DNA of 64,000 nt from Onthophagus taurus (lineage: Eukaryota; Arthropoda; Insecta; Coleoptera; Scarabaeidae): assembly GCF_036711975.1 (NCBI RefSeq), contig NW_027248941.1:3162001-3226000 (forward strand). The letters run 5' to 3'. The notes beneath the pieces are model-generated. The model saw only the letters and a list, made by a program, of their open reading frames with translations, was not told the origin of the DNA and did not search any database. This document shows, in pieces, positions 5,201 through 64,000 of this stretch. How positions within the stretch are numbered: the first letter of the stretch is position 1; every line of letters starts with the position of its first letter. The position numbers and the translations under genes are program-made.

Positions 5201-7163
5201 GTCCTTAAATAATTCAACGGTACTAAAACAAATACAAAGATAACGAAAAGTATATAAAAAGCACCTTTTTACTTGCTTTTTACAAACATCCTCTGGGTTC
5301 CCTTCGATTACCCCACAACAAACCTCCTCTAACGTTTTAATACTCTCTGTCAAATTAAGATTTTCCGCTAAAAATTTTCGAAAACACGTTGTTGTTACAA
5401 CGAAACCCGGTGGTACTGTGAATTCGTTTGAAATGATCGTCGATAATAAAGCTAACGAATTTCCTTTTCCACCAGTTAAAGCCCCATCGAGGCATTCAAC
5501 ACTCATTAATGATCGTACCAAAATTTCTTGAGGGTTTTTAACCGATTTGGGTGCTAAAAGCGGTTCGGGGAGTGACAAATCTTGCCCGTTTTGGCGATAC
5601 CAAAAGCGAACGAATCCTTTTACTTGATCCGAATTTAAGTCACACTCAATGTTTGTTGATTTTACAACATAACCTCTCTCAGCGTTGTTTTGAGTTGTTG
5701 AAGTTTTATTTGTATTTAAATGGGAGACACATTTAAACGTTTTATTATTAACTAAAGTAAAGAAAATTAATAAAAATTATGTAATTAATTAAAAAGTAAT
5801 AACCTTTAAAATGAATTGTAAACACATTTGGAATTTCCATGTTATCGGCTAAATGTTCTAAGGAGACATCACTAGAGGTTATACTCATTACTTCTCCGTT
5901 ATTTAAAAGAACCGTTCCATATCTTAATCTATAAGAAAAAAAATATTTGAAGAAAATGAGGTTATGTTTTTATAATTTTGAGGTTAGGTTGTTCTTATTT
6001 ACTGTGTAGCTCCTATTCGATAACTTTTAGCGCCGACACAAAACACAGTCCCATCATGTGAAACTCCAAAAACGTGGAAATCTCTTTTTAGCGTTAAACA
6101 ATCGCTTGGGCCCCATATTCTTCTCCTCCAACTTGGCAAATATAAATACAAATCGTCTCCTAAAGATGTGGCCGATAAATGACCCTGTAGTACGCCATAC
6201 TGTTCAAATCCGCATTCACTTCCTCTTTAAACCAAACATTAATTAAAAGGAGATTAAGATTAAAATTTTTGTCTCTTATTTACAACATTCTAATCCATTC
6301 CCCATCTTTCCACGGCTCCCTAGCTACAGCATCAGATAACAAATCTGGGCTAACACCATGGGGATAATAAACCGGCTCAGAACCTGCGTTCCAACTAAAC
6401 AAAAATTAAAATAATACAATTAATTTATAAATTAACTTACAAAAATCGAAAATTAACATATTCCAACTCTGGTTTCGACATTTTAAATGAACTACATCTC
6501 ATAATTCCATTGTAAGTAATCCTTAATCGTCTCAGAGGGTTTAAAATTTCAATGTTTAACCCGGCCCCTCTCCAGCAGCGCGAATTTACACTTTTAATTT
6601 CAATTAGAGGTTCATCTATAATGAAAAAGTTAGGTAGTTAAGTATGTATTTCTGAGTTATTGTATTTACTTGGTAATTTATAAATTTTTCCGCATTTACT
6701 TCGAAACTCAATGGAAACATCCATGTGTAATGTGTGTTTAAAGTTGAGGATGATGGATAGAACATTTCCATCGGTATCAGCACCATAAATGATGTAGTTA
6801 TCGGATTCCTTAAACAATAAATTGATAAATAAAAATACATAACCTTTAGTAACATAATTTGTGTTTATTTACATATTTAGTTGAATTTTTTTGTGGTAAT
6901 TCTTGATCTAACTCAGATAAACGTTTAATAACGTATTTATATTCGTCTTGTAATCGCTTAATAGATGGGGCTGCGAAAATCTTTTTGACGTTATAATACC
7001 AAGCTAAAAAAAAAAATGTTTCAATTATAAAATGAAAATTGACGTTTTAAAACTTACTCGGTCGATTATAATAAGATATCCTCCTTTTTCCAAAAATAAT
7101 TACATACAAAATTAAAGGCGTCACGAAAAGTGATAAATAATAAGCTAAATAAAGAAAATCCAT
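2281..7163 (-). CDS. PEP synthase / rifampicin phosphotransferase-like protein, tandem copy A
   Basis: Large multidomain phosphotransferase of the PEP-synthase/PPDK superfamily. I resolve 17 exons whose coding lengths sum to 3942 nt, giving 1313 residues. In order: an N-terminal membrane anchor (about residues 4-24, start MDFLYLAYYLSLFV), an insect-type N-terminal region of about 380 residues that I do not recognise, an ATP-grasp domain (glycine loop GGKGNSL near 430, AVRSSGIGEDSDELSAAGQN near 541, then VQKMIPSECAGVLFT and the closing LQSRPIT), a central helical region, and the C-terminal swivelling domain with the phosphorylatable His in TEIGGLISHG near 1271. All catalytic landmarks of bacterial PEP synthase and rifampicin phosphotransferase are present. 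The domain order suits ATP-dependent phosphoryl transfer through a phospho-His, but the substrate in insects is unknown to me. Copy B lies 380 bp upstream in the same direction. Confidence 0.9.
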
Positions 7164-58552: not shown

Positions 58553-58969
58553 TTTAATCACAAAACACACTTATTATTACTTTATACTTTTTAGTTTACG
58601 GTCTAGTATTTAAACAATTACGATGACTCATCTTTTAATTTTTTATTGCGTTTTTTTTACATGAATAATGATAACAAACAGTACTTAAGTGTACTAGAAA
58701 TAATTAAAATTCTTTCTAATAACACATACAAAACAATTCCTTTTATTTATTGTAAAAGTTTACATACAATGCGATCAAGAAAGCCGGTCCGTTAGAAACT
58801 ACTATCCCTAGCGCTTGATACCAATACTTACTGCCCTCGTCACACCGGTCATACCCTCGTACTTGTTTTAAATAGTGATGGGGAAATGGGAGGAAACTTT
58901 TAGTCCTTTTAGTTAAGTAAACACAACCTTAACAACTCATAGGCACAAAATTAAAAATGTTACTCTCAG
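58553..58969. other. Upstream flank of the serine protease before the satellite
   Basis: Probably the protease promoter and 5' UTR next to 58552, then about 300 bp of unremarkable sequence that becomes less AT-rich toward 58970. No ORF or repeat seen. Confidence 0.4.
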
Positions 58970-59518
58970 GCAGGGTTGGGTTGCGGTAGGGCAGGGTTGG
59001 GTTGCGGTAGGGCAGGGCTGGGTTGCGGTAGGGCAGGGCTGGGTTGCGGTAGGGCAGGGGTGGGTTGCGGTAGGGCAGGGCTGGGTTGCGGTAGGGCAGG
59101 GTTGGGTTGCGGTAGGGCAGGGTTGGGTTGCGGTAGGGCAGTGTTGGGTTGCGGTAGGGCAGGGTTGGGTTGCGGTAGGGCAGGGTTGGGTTGCGGTAGG
59201 GCAGGGTTGGGTTGCGGTAGGGCAGGGTTGGGTTGCGGTAGGGCAGGGTTGGGTTGCGGTAGGGCAGGGTTGGGTTGCGGTAGGGCAGGGTTGGGTTGCG
59301 GTAGGGCAGGGTTGGGTTGCGGTAGGGCAGGGTTGGGTTGCGGTAGGGCAGGGTTGGGTTGCGGTAGGGCAGGGTTGGGTTGCGGTAGGGCAGGGTTGGG
59401 TTGCGGTAGGGCAGGGCTGGGTTGCGGTAGGGCAGGGTTGGGTTGCGGTAGGGCAGGGTTGGGTTGCGGTAGGGCAGGGTTGGGTTGCGGTAGGGCAGGG
59501 TTGGGTTGCGGTAGGGCA
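58970..59518. repeat. 21-bp tandem repeat, about 26 copies
   Basis: The unit GGGTTGGGTTGCGGTAGGGC plus A (21 bp) repeats head to tail with very few changes (T/C in the first pentamer of several units, a GGGGT variant, one CAGTG). The unit parses as GGGTT, GGGTT, GCGGTA, GGGCA, i.e. four telomere-like G-rich words. It is strand-asymmetric: all G-rich on plus. Because 21 is a multiple of three and the unit has no stop, it yields long meaningless ORFs on both strands (heptads Gly-Cys-Gly-Arg-Ala-Gly-Leu and Pro-Cys-Pro-Thr-Ala-Thr-Gln). Confidence 0.97.
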
Positions 59519-59588
59519 GGGTTGGGTTGGGTTGGGTTGGGTTGGGTTGGGTTGGGTTGGGTTGGGTTGGGTTGGGTTGGGTTGGGTT
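59519..59588. repeat. (GGGTT)14 pentamer array, telomere-like
   Basis: Seventy bases of perfect GGGTT (equivalently TTGGG) directly join the 21-bp array on the left and the LINE on the right. It differs from the ancestral insect telomere repeat TTAGG by one base per unit. The lack of any error in 14 units implies recent synthesis or homogenisation. It may be telomeric, interstitial telomere-like or part of the LINE leader. Confidence 0.95.
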
Positions 59589-60146
59589 CCCCTCAGGGGC
59601 CTAGTGTGATCACTGGGTACGGGCTTAGCGAACCCGAGGTACCTGAGCTCGAGGAGCACACCTCGTTAAAAAACCGGGGTCCGCCTGGCCCGGACGGTAG
59701 TACCCTGTAGGGCACCTGCCTGGGTTACAGGTGAAGATTTTGGAAGGCCGGCAGAATTCCGGAGTTGTGTAGTCCTTGTAAGTGTGTAATAAATGTTCAG
59801 TGTAATGACCGACGCGGCTGGGGAGAATCGGGGAGTGCTTGCTGGCCAGTGGCTTGCTTCGGCTGTTGGTTTTTGCGGGCTGATGTGAGTTTACTCTGCC
59901 GAAGAGGATTCCACGTCGTGTTCAGGTGCCGGCCCCTTCGGGACCTGGGTCGGGTAGTGGGCATTGGGTGAGGAGGGTCGGGACTCCTCATCGATACGGG
60001 CGAGTGCCTACCGTCTGGTATCCGGGTAGGTTAAGCGGCGACTGGGCCTCAGGGAACTGGGGTAGGGGTCACGACCCCGAGGGTACACCCGTTCCTGGTC
60101 ATGCCGGCCCGCCCCTCTGCGCACGATGCGCCGGTAAACTGGAAGG
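59589..60146 (+). other. LINE 5' untranslated region
   Basis: About 560 bp of GC-rich leader. It begins with the near-palindrome CCCCTCAGGGG and has no ORF matching known proteins. It should contain an internal promoter, as R1-clade elements usually need one; no motif can be assigned from sequence alone. Confidence 0.6.
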
Positions 60147-61883
60147 ATGTCAACTTTAAGAAGCACAGACAAAGAGGATATGGGAAGGAAAAATGATGGA
60201 GGTAATGAAGAGAACAGAGAGAAGGTCTCACAATTGAGGAGAATGTATGGGCACAATAGGAGTAGCTCCCTAACTGGTGAAGTGAAGAAAAGGAAGGTAC
60301 ACGACACGTCCATAGAAAAAGTGGATCAAGAAGGACAGGTGTATAAAATGAGAGAAAGCCCGGAATGCTTCCTTGTGGAAGAAAGTCTGGACATGGTCAA
60401 AAAGCTAGTTAAAAACTTACAATCGTATATTGAACAAAATACGAAAAGGGAGATTAAGGAGACTACTACCAAATTGACTAGGCAAATGGACGCTCTTGAT
60501 AGGGATTCAATAAAGCAATGGCTGAAGAAACTGAGATATGAACCAGCCGAGAAAATGGTATTTGACGCGGACACGCAAACGGACAGACGGTCTAATACAT
60601 CTACCAGAGAGATGGGGACCCAAACAATTGGGGACGAAGTCGTCTATTTGGAAAGTGAGGTCGAAACCTACGAGGACTGGGAGATGATAGGGGATGCGAC
60701 CTGGGAGGAAGAATCGTTTCGGAATACCGAAATTAAGAAGGGAAGTCCGTTAAATGCAAAGGTGGGAACAGTAATGGTAGTGATTGTGGACCCTTCGGAT
60801 GAACCTATGGAGAAGGGTATTCAGGGGAAATTCAGAGAGAGATTCCCGGAATTAGGAGAGATAAATGATGAAATAGGTGTGGTCGAACAGGAATGTAAAA
60901 TAAGGATAAAGGACCAGGTGGAAAAGAGGAACAGGAAAATTATTAAGTTATTATACGATAACACGGATAGAGGTCTCTTCCAGAGAATTAAAGACCTAAG
61001 GCAAGAAACGGACGGAGTAGAATGGATTGCTATCCATAAGATGAGAAATATGGACACTACAAAATTCAGAAAGATGATAGAGAGCGTGTTCCACTCGTCA
61101 GGGACTAAGGTGATTATATACACTCCGGAATCGGAGATAGAAGCGACGAAAGGGCAACCGAAGCGGAAAACGTATGCGTTAATCGTCGAAAGTAAGGAGA
61201 AAACCTTTACGGAAACGCTAAAAGGAGTAAAGGAGACGTTAAAGAAGGAGAAGATTGGTGAGGGAATTAGAGGCATCAAGAGTACTAGAAACGGTAAGGT
61301 ACTTATTACCATAGAAAAAGATGGTGATGCAATTAATAAGATAAGTGAGGCCATAAATAGAAGCGGAGAGGAAACTAAGTGTAAAAGGATGGGTGATGAC
61401 GATACTGAGATCATTCACGTTAGAGGTATGGATGCATTGGTGAAAGAGGAAGAGATCCGCGAAGCTATTGCTGATGCCCTGGGAGGAGAGGAACATGGTT
61501 TAGAGATGGGTAAACTGAGACCGATGAAGGGAGAGATGAAGGCGATCACCATCAAGTTAGACAAAAAAGGAGCGGAAACCCTACTAAGGAAAAGACAATT
61601 GAAGATTGGCTTTATAAGTTGCGAATTGGACAAGCGAATAGAGGTACTAAAATGCTTTAAATGTTGGGGATATGGCCATACAAACAAGGATTGTAAGGGA
61701 GCAGATAGAACTAAACTGTGTTATAAATGTGGGGAAACAGACCATGGTGTGAAAGACTGCCCAAATGAAGAATCGTGCCCTATGTGCAAAGCTAAAGGAC
61801 ACAAGGCAGGATCGGGTAAGTGCAGAATATTCAAGGAAGCACTTACTATAGCTAGAAGAGCCACCCGCAAGCGCAATGTATAG
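60147..61883 (+). CDS. LINE ORF1, gag-like nucleic-acid-binding protein
   Basis: 578 residues, start MSTLRSTDKEDMGRKN. The highly charged N-terminal and central part includes coiled-coil-like stretches. The C-terminus has three zinc knuckles near residues 505-560: CFKCWGYGHTNKDC, CYKCGETDHGVKDC and CPMCKAKGHKAGSGKC. The last has six residues between His and Cys, a spacing seen in R1-clade ORF1 proteins. ORF1 of this clade binds element RNA and, in SART/TRAS, carries it to the target. The final codons overlap the start of ORF2 by 8 nt. Confidence 0.93.
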   Translation: MSTLRSTDKEDMGRKNDGGNEENREKVSQLRRMYGHNRSSSLTGEVKKRKVHDTSIEKVDQEGQVYKMRESPECFLVEESLDMVKKLVKNLQSYIEQNTKREIKETTTKLTRQMDALDRDSIKQWLKKLRYEPAEKMVFDADTQTDRRSNTSTREMGTQTIGDEVVYLESEVETYEDWEMIGDATWEEESFRNTEIKKGSPLNAKVGTVMVVIVDPSDEPMEKGIQGKFRERFPELGEINDEIGVVEQECKIRIKDQVEKRNRKIIKLLYDNTDRGLFQRIKDLRQETDGVEWIAIHKMRNMDTTKFRKMIESVFHSSGTKVIIYTPESEIEATKGQPKRKTYALIVESKEKTFTETLKGVKETLKKEKIGEGIRGIKSTRNGKVLITIEKDGDAINKISEAINRSGEETKCKRMGDDDTEIIHVRGMDALVKEEEIREAIADALGGEEHGLEMGKLRPMKGEMKAITIKLDKKGAETLLRKRQLKIGFISCELDKRIEVLKCFKCWGYGHTNKDCKGADRTKLCYKCGETDHGVKDCPNEESCPMCKAKGHKAGSGKCRIFKEALTIARRATRKRNV

Positions 61884-64000
61884 AAGCTTAGATAGGAAGA
61901 TTAAGGTTGCCCAGTTAAATTTTAATAGGGTATATGCGGCGCATGAGATGATGGAGAGGAGGGTTAAGGAGGATGGGATCCAGGTGATAATCGGCTGTGA
62001 GCAGAATAAGCGGTGCAGGACAATACAATACTGTGATAAGAACTGTGATACTTTTATTAATTTATATGGTGAATGTCTTGTGATGGATTGGCGTGCCGGG
62101 AATGGTTTTGTTTGTGTGGTGTTGCCGGATTTTATGATTGTGTCATGTTATTTCTCGCCAAATGGTAGTCGCTCAGACTTTGAAAGGCTACTCTATGACA
62201 TTGATTTGGTAACTAGGCGTATACAAAAGCCCAAAATCATTGGGGGTGATCTTAATGCCAAATCCGTTGTAATTGGCTCCTCGAACGTAAACGAAAGAGG
62301 TAGAATTCTCGAAGAGTGGCTGTCCTCTACTGGAGATATGGTTGTAATAAATGAGGGAAATATCCCGACGTTCATGGCTGCAAGAGGTGCCTCAGTAATT
62401 GATTTTACTGCAGTGTCCATCGTATTGCGGAACAAAGTGCAAGGCTGGAGGGTGGAGGAGGATGATGAAAATCTAAGTGATCATCGTACAATTAGGTTCG
62501 AAATTATAAGTGCTACCCATACAGAAGAGACTGCGGAGAAGCAGGGATGGCATGCGAACGAAATTTCGATGAAGAGATATGCCGAATTGTGTGTGGATCT
62601 ATTCAAGGAAGAAGAAACAGTATCACCCGAGAGTATGCTACAAAAGATTATAGAAAAATGTAATGTCGCATTGGTTAAAAAGAAATTAAATAGGAACTGG
62701 AAGCCAATGTACTGGTGGAACGAGGAAATTGCAAGTAGACGGAGGGAGTGTGTAAGATCAAGGAGGATGTTTACAAGATCAAGAAGAAGAAGCGATGAAA
62801 CTGAGACAAGTACATGTTGGGATACGTATAGGGAGGCTAAGAAGAGATTGAAGTTGGAAATAGAGAAGAGTAAAGAAAAAAAATGGAAGGAATTGCTATT
62901 GGAACTGAATGACAATGTATGGGGCAAAGCCTATGGTATAATCACAAGGAAATTCAATCTGAGAAAGGAAAGACAGCTTGGCGAAAGAGAGGTCAAGGAA
63001 CAAATTAGGAAATTATTCCCAAAACACGAGCTCGTGGAATGGGATGACAACGGTGGAAGGGAGATTGAGAATGCTCCGGAAGTTGAATTGGAAGAACTGA
63101 TTGATGCGGTGGGCAAGATTAGGAAGCGGAAAGCTCCAGGGCCTGACGGGATTTCACCAGAGATACTTATAGCCACAGTAACGGGTAATCAACAGGCTTT
63201 CTTGAAAATGTATAGGAATTGCCTTCAGAGTGGGATCTTTCCTGATGCGTGGAAGGTAGCAAGGCTGGTTCTGATTGAGAAGCCGAAGAAAAAGCCCGAC
63301 GACACCTCAACGTTTAGGCCGATCTGCCTGGGTAACACCATGGGAAAACTCTTCGAAATGATAATCAGAAACAGACTTCACGAAGAGATCGAAGAGAAGG
63401 GTCTTCTACATGACGATCAGTATGGTTTTCGGAAGGGCAGATCGACTATCCAAGCGATACAAAGGGTGCAAGGAATTGTAGAAGAATTAAAAAAGAAAAG
63501 CTACACGCATAGGGAATGCTGCGTATTGGTTTTGCTAGACATTGAAAACGCCTTTAACTCGGCTCCTTGGCGAGAAATGATAGATGCTTTGAAAAGAGGA
63601 GGGATTAGCGATTACCTTATAAGGATAATCCAGTCCTATTTTACCAACCGATATATTATAGCGCCAGGGGAGAAATATATCCAGATATCGAGCGGCGTTC
63701 CACAGGGTTCAATCCTGGGCCCTACGCTGTGGAATGTATACTACGACAGTGTTCTGCGAATTGAAGTAGAAGAGGGAGTAACCCTAGTGGCATATGCGGA
63801 CGACCTCGCGGTGTTAGTGAAGGGGAAGGATAGAATACAGTTAGAAGACAAAACAGCATGGGCGGTAGGAAAGGTTATCAGGAAGCTACAAGAGATGAAA
63901 CTCAAGGTAGCAACAGTAAAGACGGAGATGGTCCTCCTGCAGGGGAGAAGAAGGGTTAGAGATATAGAGGTGGAGATAGCGGGGACAGTGGTGAAGAGTG
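61876..64000 (+). CDS. LINE ORF2, endonuclease and reverse transcriptase (partial, runs off the right edge)
   Basis: Open from ATG at 61876 to the edge (708 codons visible). It begins MYRSLDRKIKVAQLNFNR. The APE-type endonuclease occupies residues 8-220 with LNFN, IIGCEQ, GGDLNAKS, VIDFTAVS and the closing SDHRTI. The reverse transcriptase follows: RKAPGPDGIS, FRPICLGNTMGKLFE, QYGFRKGRST, LLDIENAFNSAPW (motif A), SGVPQGSILGP (motif B) and VAYADDLAVLV (catalytic YADD). The thumb and any C-terminal CCHC lie beyond 64000. The ATG overlaps the ORF1 stop in ATGTATAG, suggesting translation by termination-reinitiation. No disabling change seen. Confidence 0.94.
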   Translation, partial: MYRSLDRKIKVAQLNFNRVYAAHEMMERRVKEDGIQVIIGCEQNKRCRTIQYCDKNCDTFINLYGECLVMDWRAGNGFVCVVLPDFMIVSCYFSPNGSRSDFERLLYDIDLVTRRIQKPKIIGGDLNAKSVVIGSSNVNERGRILEEWLSSTGDMVVINEGNIPTFMAARGASVIDFTAVSIVLRNKVQGWRVEEDDENLSDHRTIRFEIISATHTEETAEKQGWHANEISMKRYAELCVDLFKEEETVSPESMLQKIIEKCNVALVKKKLNRNWKPMYWWNEEIASRRRECVRSRRMFTRSRRRSDETETSTCWDTYREAKKRLKLEIEKSKEKKWKELLLELNDNVWGKAYGIITRKFNLRKERQLGEREVKEQIRKLFPKHELVEWDDNGGREIENAPEVELEELIDAVGKIRKRKAPGPDGISPEILIATVTGNQQAFLKMYRNCLQSGIFPDAWKVARLVLIEKPKKKPDDTSTFRPICLGNTMGKLFEMIIRNRLHEEIEEKGLLHDDQYGFRKGRSTIQAIQRVQGIVEELKKKSYTHRECCVLVLLDIENAFNSAPWREMIDALKRGGISDYLIRIIQSYFTNRYIIAPGEKYIQISSGVPQGSILGPTLWNVYYDSVLRIEVEEGVTLVAYADDLAVLVKGKDRIQLEDKTAWAVGKVIRKLQEMKLKVATVKTEMVLLQGRRRVRDIEVEIAGTVVKS

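What the first reader, a model, noticed from the sequence alone, without database searches (positions are those of the whole stretch)
59519..64000. Apparently intact R1-clade LINE sitting in perfect GGGTT pentamers: candidate telomere-targeted element
Fourteen error-free GGGTT units directly abut the 5' end of a LINE with two open ORFs. In the R1 clade, SART and TRAS insert specifically into TTAGG telomere repeats (established in silkworm). Here the flanking pentamer is TTGGG, and the G-rich strand is the sense strand, as I recall for SART. Either this species has a TTGGG-type telomere, or the element has shifted target specificity to a derived G-rich satellite. The telomere reading is inference.
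Basis: partly seen in the sequence, partly recalled or inferred. Interest (0 to 1): 0.78.

Follow-up and report, generated by a model that had tools for sequence, protein, structure and literature searches.

The report
Beetle jumping gene targeting TTGGG telomeres
This is a mobile element that lives inside the chromosome-end repeats of what is very probably a dung beetle and slots into them at one fixed spot, much like elements known from silkworm and flour beetle, but here the end repeat is TTGGG, which lacks a base that the silkworm element needs.

Summary
Confirmed. The 14 GGGTT units (59519-59588) abut the 5' end of a LINE with two open frames. The genome matches the Onthophagus taurus assembly Otau3.0 in size, N50 and longest scaffold, and several contigs end in TTGGG/CCCAA arrays. 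The LINE lies about 20 kb from its contig end and is followed by a poly(A) tail and 326 perfect GGGTT units. The exact 5' signature occurs 6 times in 291 Mb, all 6 within 60 kb of a contig end and directly behind 5 to 179 perfect GGGTT units. Of 20 poly(A)-to-TTGGG junctions, 18 read A(n)|GGGTT; 12 lie within 60 kb of a contig end and all 12 point to it; the opposite orientation gave none. The insertion point is TT^GGG on the G strand, the counterpart of SART1's TT^AGG. The endonuclease fold is closest to TRAS1 and R1Bm, and the 3' tail carries a covarying RNA structure. It is a SART-type telomere LINE. New here: the TTGGG target, and nine diverged groups sharing chromosome ends. SART-type insertions in beetle telomeres are already known.

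The parts
58969..59518 (+). Subtelomeric 21-bp satellite (GGCAGGGTTGGGTTGCGGTAG), 26 full units, built of telomere-like pieces; a closely similar 21-bp array lies near the left end of contig C10
   Evidence: TRF; unit count; C10 array
59519..59588 (+). (GGGTT)14, error-free telomeric repeat directly 5' of the LINE
59589..60146 (+). LINE 5' UTR, starting CCCCTCAGGGGCC directly behind the TT of a telomeric unit
   Evidence: shared start in sister copies
60147..61883 (+). ORF1, 578 aa counted from its ATG, with three C-terminal CCHC knuckles
   Evidence: open frame; Pfam zf-CCHC just under its cut-off (19.9 against 20.8 bits)
61653..61823 (+). Three CCHC motifs of ORF1 (CX2CX4HX4C, CX2CX4HX4C, CX2CX4HX6C)
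61876..64000 (+). ORF2 (986 aa; its ATG overlaps the end of ORF1 by 8 bases; continues to C16:3226836, 836 bases past the window)
61876..62530 (+). APE-type endonuclease domain of ORF2; best fold matches TRAS1 EN and R1Bm EN
63289..63936 (+). Reverse transcriptase domain (Pfam RVT_1, E 8.6e-33)

Best explanation
A SART-type (R1-clade-like) LINE of a scarab beetle, very probably Onthophagus taurus, that inserts into the host's own (TTGGG)n telomere. Proposed cycle: the ORF2 endonuclease nicks the C-rich strand opposite TT^GGG inside the array; the RT, recruited by a structured 3' UTR and a poly(A) tail, primes on the nick; the new copy lies with its sense strand on the G-rich strand and its 3' end towards the chromosome tip. 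Repeated rounds stack head-to-tail LINEs separated by telomeric repeats. Shown here: telomere motif, fixed junction phase, orientation, clustering at contig ends, open ORF1 and ORF2, EN fold, covarying 3' RNA structure. Inferred: species, nicked strand, target-primed steps, present activity, any role in keeping telomere length.
Against: The 3' junction search demands TTGGG downstream, so it shows phase and orientation, not what share of insertions hits telomeres; 8 of its 20 sites are interstitial, in short TTGGG tracts. A related family at C11:6416545 ends in poly(A) followed by TAGGTTTAC, not in an array, and two interstitial 5'-region matches on C1 have no telomeric units upstream. The window's copy has a 3' part from another family and the C6 sister copy lacks most of the 3' structure, so no copy of this exact family with a complete native 3' end was seen. 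The RT region's nearest solved chains are LINE-1 and R2; no R1-clade RT was among the hits. No data on transcription or movement.
Confidence: 0.9

Rival explanations
1. The element does not target telomeres; it was caught once in a telomere and its stacks spread by recombination and duplication between chromosome ends.
For: Clear duplications exist: two truncated copies on C16 share their first 1326 bp at 100% with the same GGGTT|ATTCGG join; C6_33161820 and C6_33130499 are 99% alike in ORF2.
Against: 12 of the 14 telomere-end ORF2 copies were compared; they form nine groups even if the 70% pair is joined, 30-56% identical between groups, so most are separate insertions. Interstitial copies with unique flanks also show A(n)|GGGTT.
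Confidence: 0.05
2. The element targets a G-rich satellite (the 21-bp or 22-bp arrays) rather than the telomere.
For: The 21-bp satellite lies next to the window's copy, and a 22-bp (GGGTTx4+GC) array next to the innermost C11 copy seen.
Against: At all 6 exact 5' ends the bases directly upstream are pure GGGTT units, 5 to 179 of them; at 4 of the 6 these follow a poly(A) run, at 2 a satellite.
Confidence: 0.03
3. The GGGTT units are a leader carried in the element's own RNA.
For: Three interstitial 5' ends found also have about 2-3 telomere-like units upstream.
Against: The unit number varies from 5 to 179, and units in the matching phase follow the 3' end.
Confidence: 0.04

Closest known systems
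SART1Bm (Bombyx mori)
   Same: [quoted passage not shown] a 3' UTR stem-loop is reported as essential (PMC5135761, passages)
   Different: Host repeat is TTGGG, not TTAGG; SART1Bm lost retrotransposition when that A was changed to C (TTGGG is not among the targets in the parts read). SART1Bm is 6.7 kb; the C6 sister copy here is 5.7 kb. The SART1Bm sequence was not on hand, so kinship was not measured
SARTTc1-7 (Tribolium castaneum)
   Same: Seven SART types in a beetle with a non-canonical telomeric pentamer, TCAGG (PMC7598501, passages)
   Different: TCAGG keeps the A; here it is replaced by G
TRAS1Bm
   Different: Inserts in the opposite orientation (PMC7265360); that orientation gave 0 matches here
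R1Bm
   Different: Targets 28S rDNA (recalled; from no call)
HeT-A/TART (Drosophila)
   Same: LINE stacks at chromosome ends
   Different: There no short telomeric repeat (PMC7265360 introduction); here copies carrying an endonuclease lie inside a short-repeat array

Membership tests
R1 clade | APE-type endonuclease most similar to R1-clade endonucleases | tested here: met
   [not shown]
R1 clade | ORF1 with three CCHC knuckles; ORF2 with EN, RT and a C-terminal CCHC (feature recalled) | tested here: met
   motifs, domains
R1 clade | RT tree groups it with named R1-clade elements | not testable with these tools
   No R1-clade RT sequence on hand; a midpoint-rooted EN tree with two reference fragments leaves TRAS1 and R1Bm outside a group of 16 rows at 82/90, too weak to lean on
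SART | Insertion inside the host's telomeric pentamer on the G-rich strand after the second T, 3' end towards the tip | tested here: met
SART | Poly(A) tail joined directly to the telomeric unit at one phase | tested here: met
   18 of 20 sites A(n)|GGGTT
SART | Structured 3' UTR | tested here: met
   11 tails, 32 pairs, 11 with changes on both sides; equivalence to the SART1 stem-loop not tested
SART | ORF2 groups with SART1Bm | not testable with these tools
   SART1Bm sequence not on hand
TRAS | Insertion in the opposite orientation (poly(A) into the C-rich strand) | tested here: not met
   0 matches of poly(A)-CCCAA
HeT-A/TART | Chromosome ends without a short telomeric repeat | tested here: not met
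   TTGGG arrays at contig ends and on both sides of copies

The most novel reading that the evidence does not exclude
When the beetle's telomere changed from TTAGG to TTGGG, several deeply separated telomere-LINE lineages followed: their endonucleases either shifted in parallel or had always read TT(A/G)GG. Then the strict need for the A seen in SART1Bm is not a property of the group, and target tracking by telomere LINEs is a repeated, testable kind of co-evolution. Three starred lineages share the chromosome ends and no poly(A) join to (TTAGG)3 was found.
Probability: 0.4. Interest if true: 0.65.

Novelty: new variant of a known kind. Interest (0 to 1): 0.52.

Why it matters
SART-type LINEs depend on reading one telomeric pentamer. 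The best-studied one, SART1Bm, failed when the A of TTAGG became C (PMC7265360). Here is a genome whose telomere lacks that A and whose ends nevertheless hold nine diverged groups of such LINEs; for eight of the nine the nearest downstream join reads A(n)|GGGTT (my assignment by position). Two copies of the window's family on different contigs are over 99.6% alike up to position 5567 with open ORF1 and ORF2. It gives a direct way to ask how an endonuclease follows a changing telomere.

Tried and rejected
Considered and set aside: fixed leader, satellite target, single capture plus duplication, TRAS-type orientation (see rivals). Telomerase: Pfam PF12009 gave no match over its cut-off (best 15 bits, E 4.18), but the control rang in 0 of 14 control genomes, so nothing follows about telomerase here. 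Rfam on 4 loci (21,102 bases) gave only two sub-threshold hits to one microRNA family, in the two sister copies. A covariance model of the 3' tail gave 21 rows over 27 held sources: 11 are the sequences that built it; of the other 10 rows two are one and the same place (L034, L103). They include tails that by position belong to the first two lineages and, more weakly, to the third.

Papers: 'SART' with 'TTGGG' gave 102 papers, of which I saw the 20 listed; two of these are on telomeres (PMC12564400; review PMC6410037, listing only). PMC12564400 reports TTGGG in a lacewing and no SART/TRAS there, and cites TTGGG in a weevil relative, a damselfly and a bee (parts 1-2 of 4 read). Lukhtanov and Pazhenkova 2023, Osanai-Futahashi and Fujiwara 2011 and Takahashi 1997 are not held; a 2025 review says SART insertions were found in most studied Coleoptera (PMC12036569, passages), so a TTGGG case may already be in print there. 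'Onthophagus taurus' with 'non-LTR' and 'telomer' gave 3 papers (listing). C6:33116859: its ORF2 stops mid-frame and runs straight into GGTTGGG; healing by new telomeric repeats and internal priming of the cDNA cannot be told apart. VIA-align and Foldseek lists are cut at 50 rows.

Dropped rows and limits: one search's 58 strings were merged to 20 sites; the pattern needs 8 A and over three TTGGG units, so further joins with only three units, at C6:33134175 and C6:27510747, are not among the 20. In the orientation count one more match within 60 kb of a contig end (C22:777607, 28% identity, on a contig whose two examined ends show no telomeric array) was left out; it also points to the end. 12 of the 14 telomere-end copies went into the tree; C1:9057 and C6:33165031 did not (not fetched whole). 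Two of the 11 tails (C10_717541, C16_3228410) are identical over their last 110 bases, so their cells count twice. 13 right contig ends were not looked at, and some stretches read N.

Full report
Observation. The window ends at the edge of a telomere. At 58969-59518 a 21-bp satellite of 26 full units is followed by exactly 14 GGGTT units (59519-59588) and then by the LINE. The array is far beyond chance: outside the satellite and the array the longest run in the window is one unit, and 200 first-order Markov windows never exceed two. ORF1 and ORF2 are open, with RVT_1 (E 8.6e-33) and Exo_endo_phos_2 (E 1.9e-16) domains in ORF2.

Which genome. The window is C16:3162001-3226000 of a 290,825,966-base genome in 33 contigs. 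C6 is 33,174,080 and C1 44,240,000 bases long. A published table gives Onthophagus taurus Otau3.0 as 290.862 Mb in 34 scaffolds, N50 33.174 Mb, longest 44.245 Mb, nine scaffolds over 10 Mb (PMC12902608, passages). Nine of contigs C1-C18 exceed 10 Mb; of the others, those whose length was printed are under 1.4 Mb. The identity is therefore inferred with good confidence. Published work lists O. taurus among species with (TTGGG)n in databases and shows the motif at chromosome ends of another scarabaeoid, Anoplotrupes stercorosus (PMC8233369, passages). The TTGGG telomere itself is thus not new.

Telomere. C1, C2, C5 and C8 begin with CCCAA arrays; C1, C6 and C7 end in TTGGG arrays; the last 2 kb of C16 are a degenerate TTGGG array that fades out before the contig stops. 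That is 8 of 53 ends looked at, all in the orientation of a telomere. Four-unit matches number 3404 forward and 3885 reverse for TTGGG; 34 for TTAGG, as short scattered tracts with 12 for the reversed control, the nearest to a contig end 4.4 kb away on C9; and none for TCAGG.

5' ends. A search with 561 bases of the 5' UTR gave 24 matches. Ten begin at base 1 or 2 of the query. All ten have telomere-like units directly upstream, eight of TTGGG type and two, both interstitial on C7, of mixed TTGGG/TTAGG type. Two more begin at bases 12-14 and have none; the other twelve are internal. An unconditional pattern for the first 17 bases occurs 6 times in the genome, 0 for the reversed control. All six lie within 60 kb of a contig end; directly upstream stand 14, 7, 5, 179, 15 and 11 perfect GGGTT units. 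The number varies, so the units are target and not leader.

3' ends. Poly(A) followed by TTGGG repeats occurs at 20 sites (58 overlapping strings against 3 for the reversed pattern). Eighteen read A(n)|GGGTT; the other two are GGATTGGG and GGTTTGGG. Twelve lie within 60 kb of a contig end, which together make up about 1.4% of the genome, and all twelve point to it. Poly(A) into CCCAA: none. Poly(A) into (TTAGG)3: none. The two junctions together give one insertion point, TT^GGG, on the G strand. For SART1Bm the published point is TT^AGG on the same strand, with poly(A) joined to AGG (PMC7265360: introduction, first of two parts of the results, discussion).

Stacking. On C16 the order is satellite, (GGGTT)14, LINE, A26, (GGGTT)326, truncated LINE, A46, about 1.5 kb of TTGGG, truncated LINE. 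On C6 the telomere starts in plain DNA near 33,114,500 and runs about 60 kb to the contig end, with nine ORF2 matches all on the plus strand. The left end of C11 is the mirror image. Of the 75 ORF2 matches listed, a lower bound, 14 with at least 34% identity lie within 60 kb of a contig end and 14 of 14 point to it.

Diversity. Twelve of these 14 ORF2 copies were compared. They form nine groups if the 70% pair is joined; between groups identity is 30-56%. A tree of 24 rows shows three starred lineages of telomere copies. Some interstitial rows lie among them. Of these, C6:27510747 ends in an A-rich tail and (GGGTT)3; C3:28333006 is followed at 28335816 by A(n)|GGGTT; C11:6293167 stands downstream of a poly(A)-(GGGTT)5 join. 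Against a strict rule, C11:6416545 ends in poly(A) then TAGGTTTAC with no array, and for C15:4812747 no poly(A)-TTGGG join was seen in 3.1 kb downstream.

3' RNA structure. Eleven 3' tails fold into one structure with 32 pairs: 97.3% of cells pair, 11 pairs have changes on both sides, and none of 500 shuffles reached any of the five measures; sliding the partners lowers pairing to 31-51%. Caveats: the tails were chosen because they end in poly(A)-TTGGG and share a visible motif, two of them are identical in their last 110 bases, and the structure was derived from them, so the slide control leans its way. A 3' UTR stem-loop is reported as essential for SART1 (PMC5135761, passages), and SART1 is classed with LINEs that need their 3' UTR (PMC4176376, passages), so the same role is plausible here.

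Oddities. The window's copy is chimeric beyond the window: it matches the C6 copy (33124641-33130332, 5692 bp) at over 99.6% up to position 5567, apart from a short in-frame difference in ORF1, and then turns into the 3' part of another LINE whose last 110 bases recur at C10:717541. The C6 copy in turn ends at ...GACAGGGGTT and A22 (L069, fetched, printed), short of the conserved 3' structure. One reading is priming at a telomere-like GGGGTT inside the RNA, as discussed for SART1Bm with short tails (PMC7265360 discussion); this is inference.

Verdict. By anatomy and insertion rule the element works like SART; the family name rests on rule and structure, since no SART sequence was on hand. It is a new variant of a known kind, with a target that lacks the base SART1Bm needs.

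Noticed in passing
window 58969-59518; C10 left end; C11:14692-15252 and 1790-1995: Two higher-order satellites (21 bp and 22 bp) that contain whole TTGGG units sit beside telomeric arrays, and one array lies between two LINEs; they look like telomere-derived subtelomeric satellites.
   Followed up: partly
C16:3227156-3228435 (L009): The 3' part of the window's LINE comes from another family: chimeric element, joined near a shared GGTATGA; the last 110 bases before the poly(A) recur at C10:717541.
   Followed up: partly
C6:33118400-33118446 (L129): A telomere LINE stops in mid ORF2 and runs straight into GGTTGGG repeats: telomere healing after erosion, or internal priming.
   Followed up: partly
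C6:33143777 and 33147145 (L111, L101): The tail nearest downstream of a third-lineage ORF2 scores highest (165 bits) with the model of first- and second-lineage tails: another mosaic, or an unseen element in between.
   Followed up: no
C16:3230066 and 3233675: Two truncated LINE copies with identical first 1326 bp and identical GGGTT join, i.e. a duplication inside the telomere.
   Followed up: no
last 2 kb of C16 (L010): The outermost array on C16 is rich in variant units (GGGTAGGG, GGGATGGG); real variants or read errors at the contig end.
   Followed up: no
C11:6416545 (L114, L126): Related LINE family with an open EN-RT region whose copy lies outside any telomeric array and ends in poly(A)23 then TAGGTTTAC; may use another target.
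   Followed up: partly
C6 and C16 copies, end of ORF2: About 250 bases spanning the end of ORF2 and the start of the 3' UTR are tandemly duplicated.
   Followed up: no
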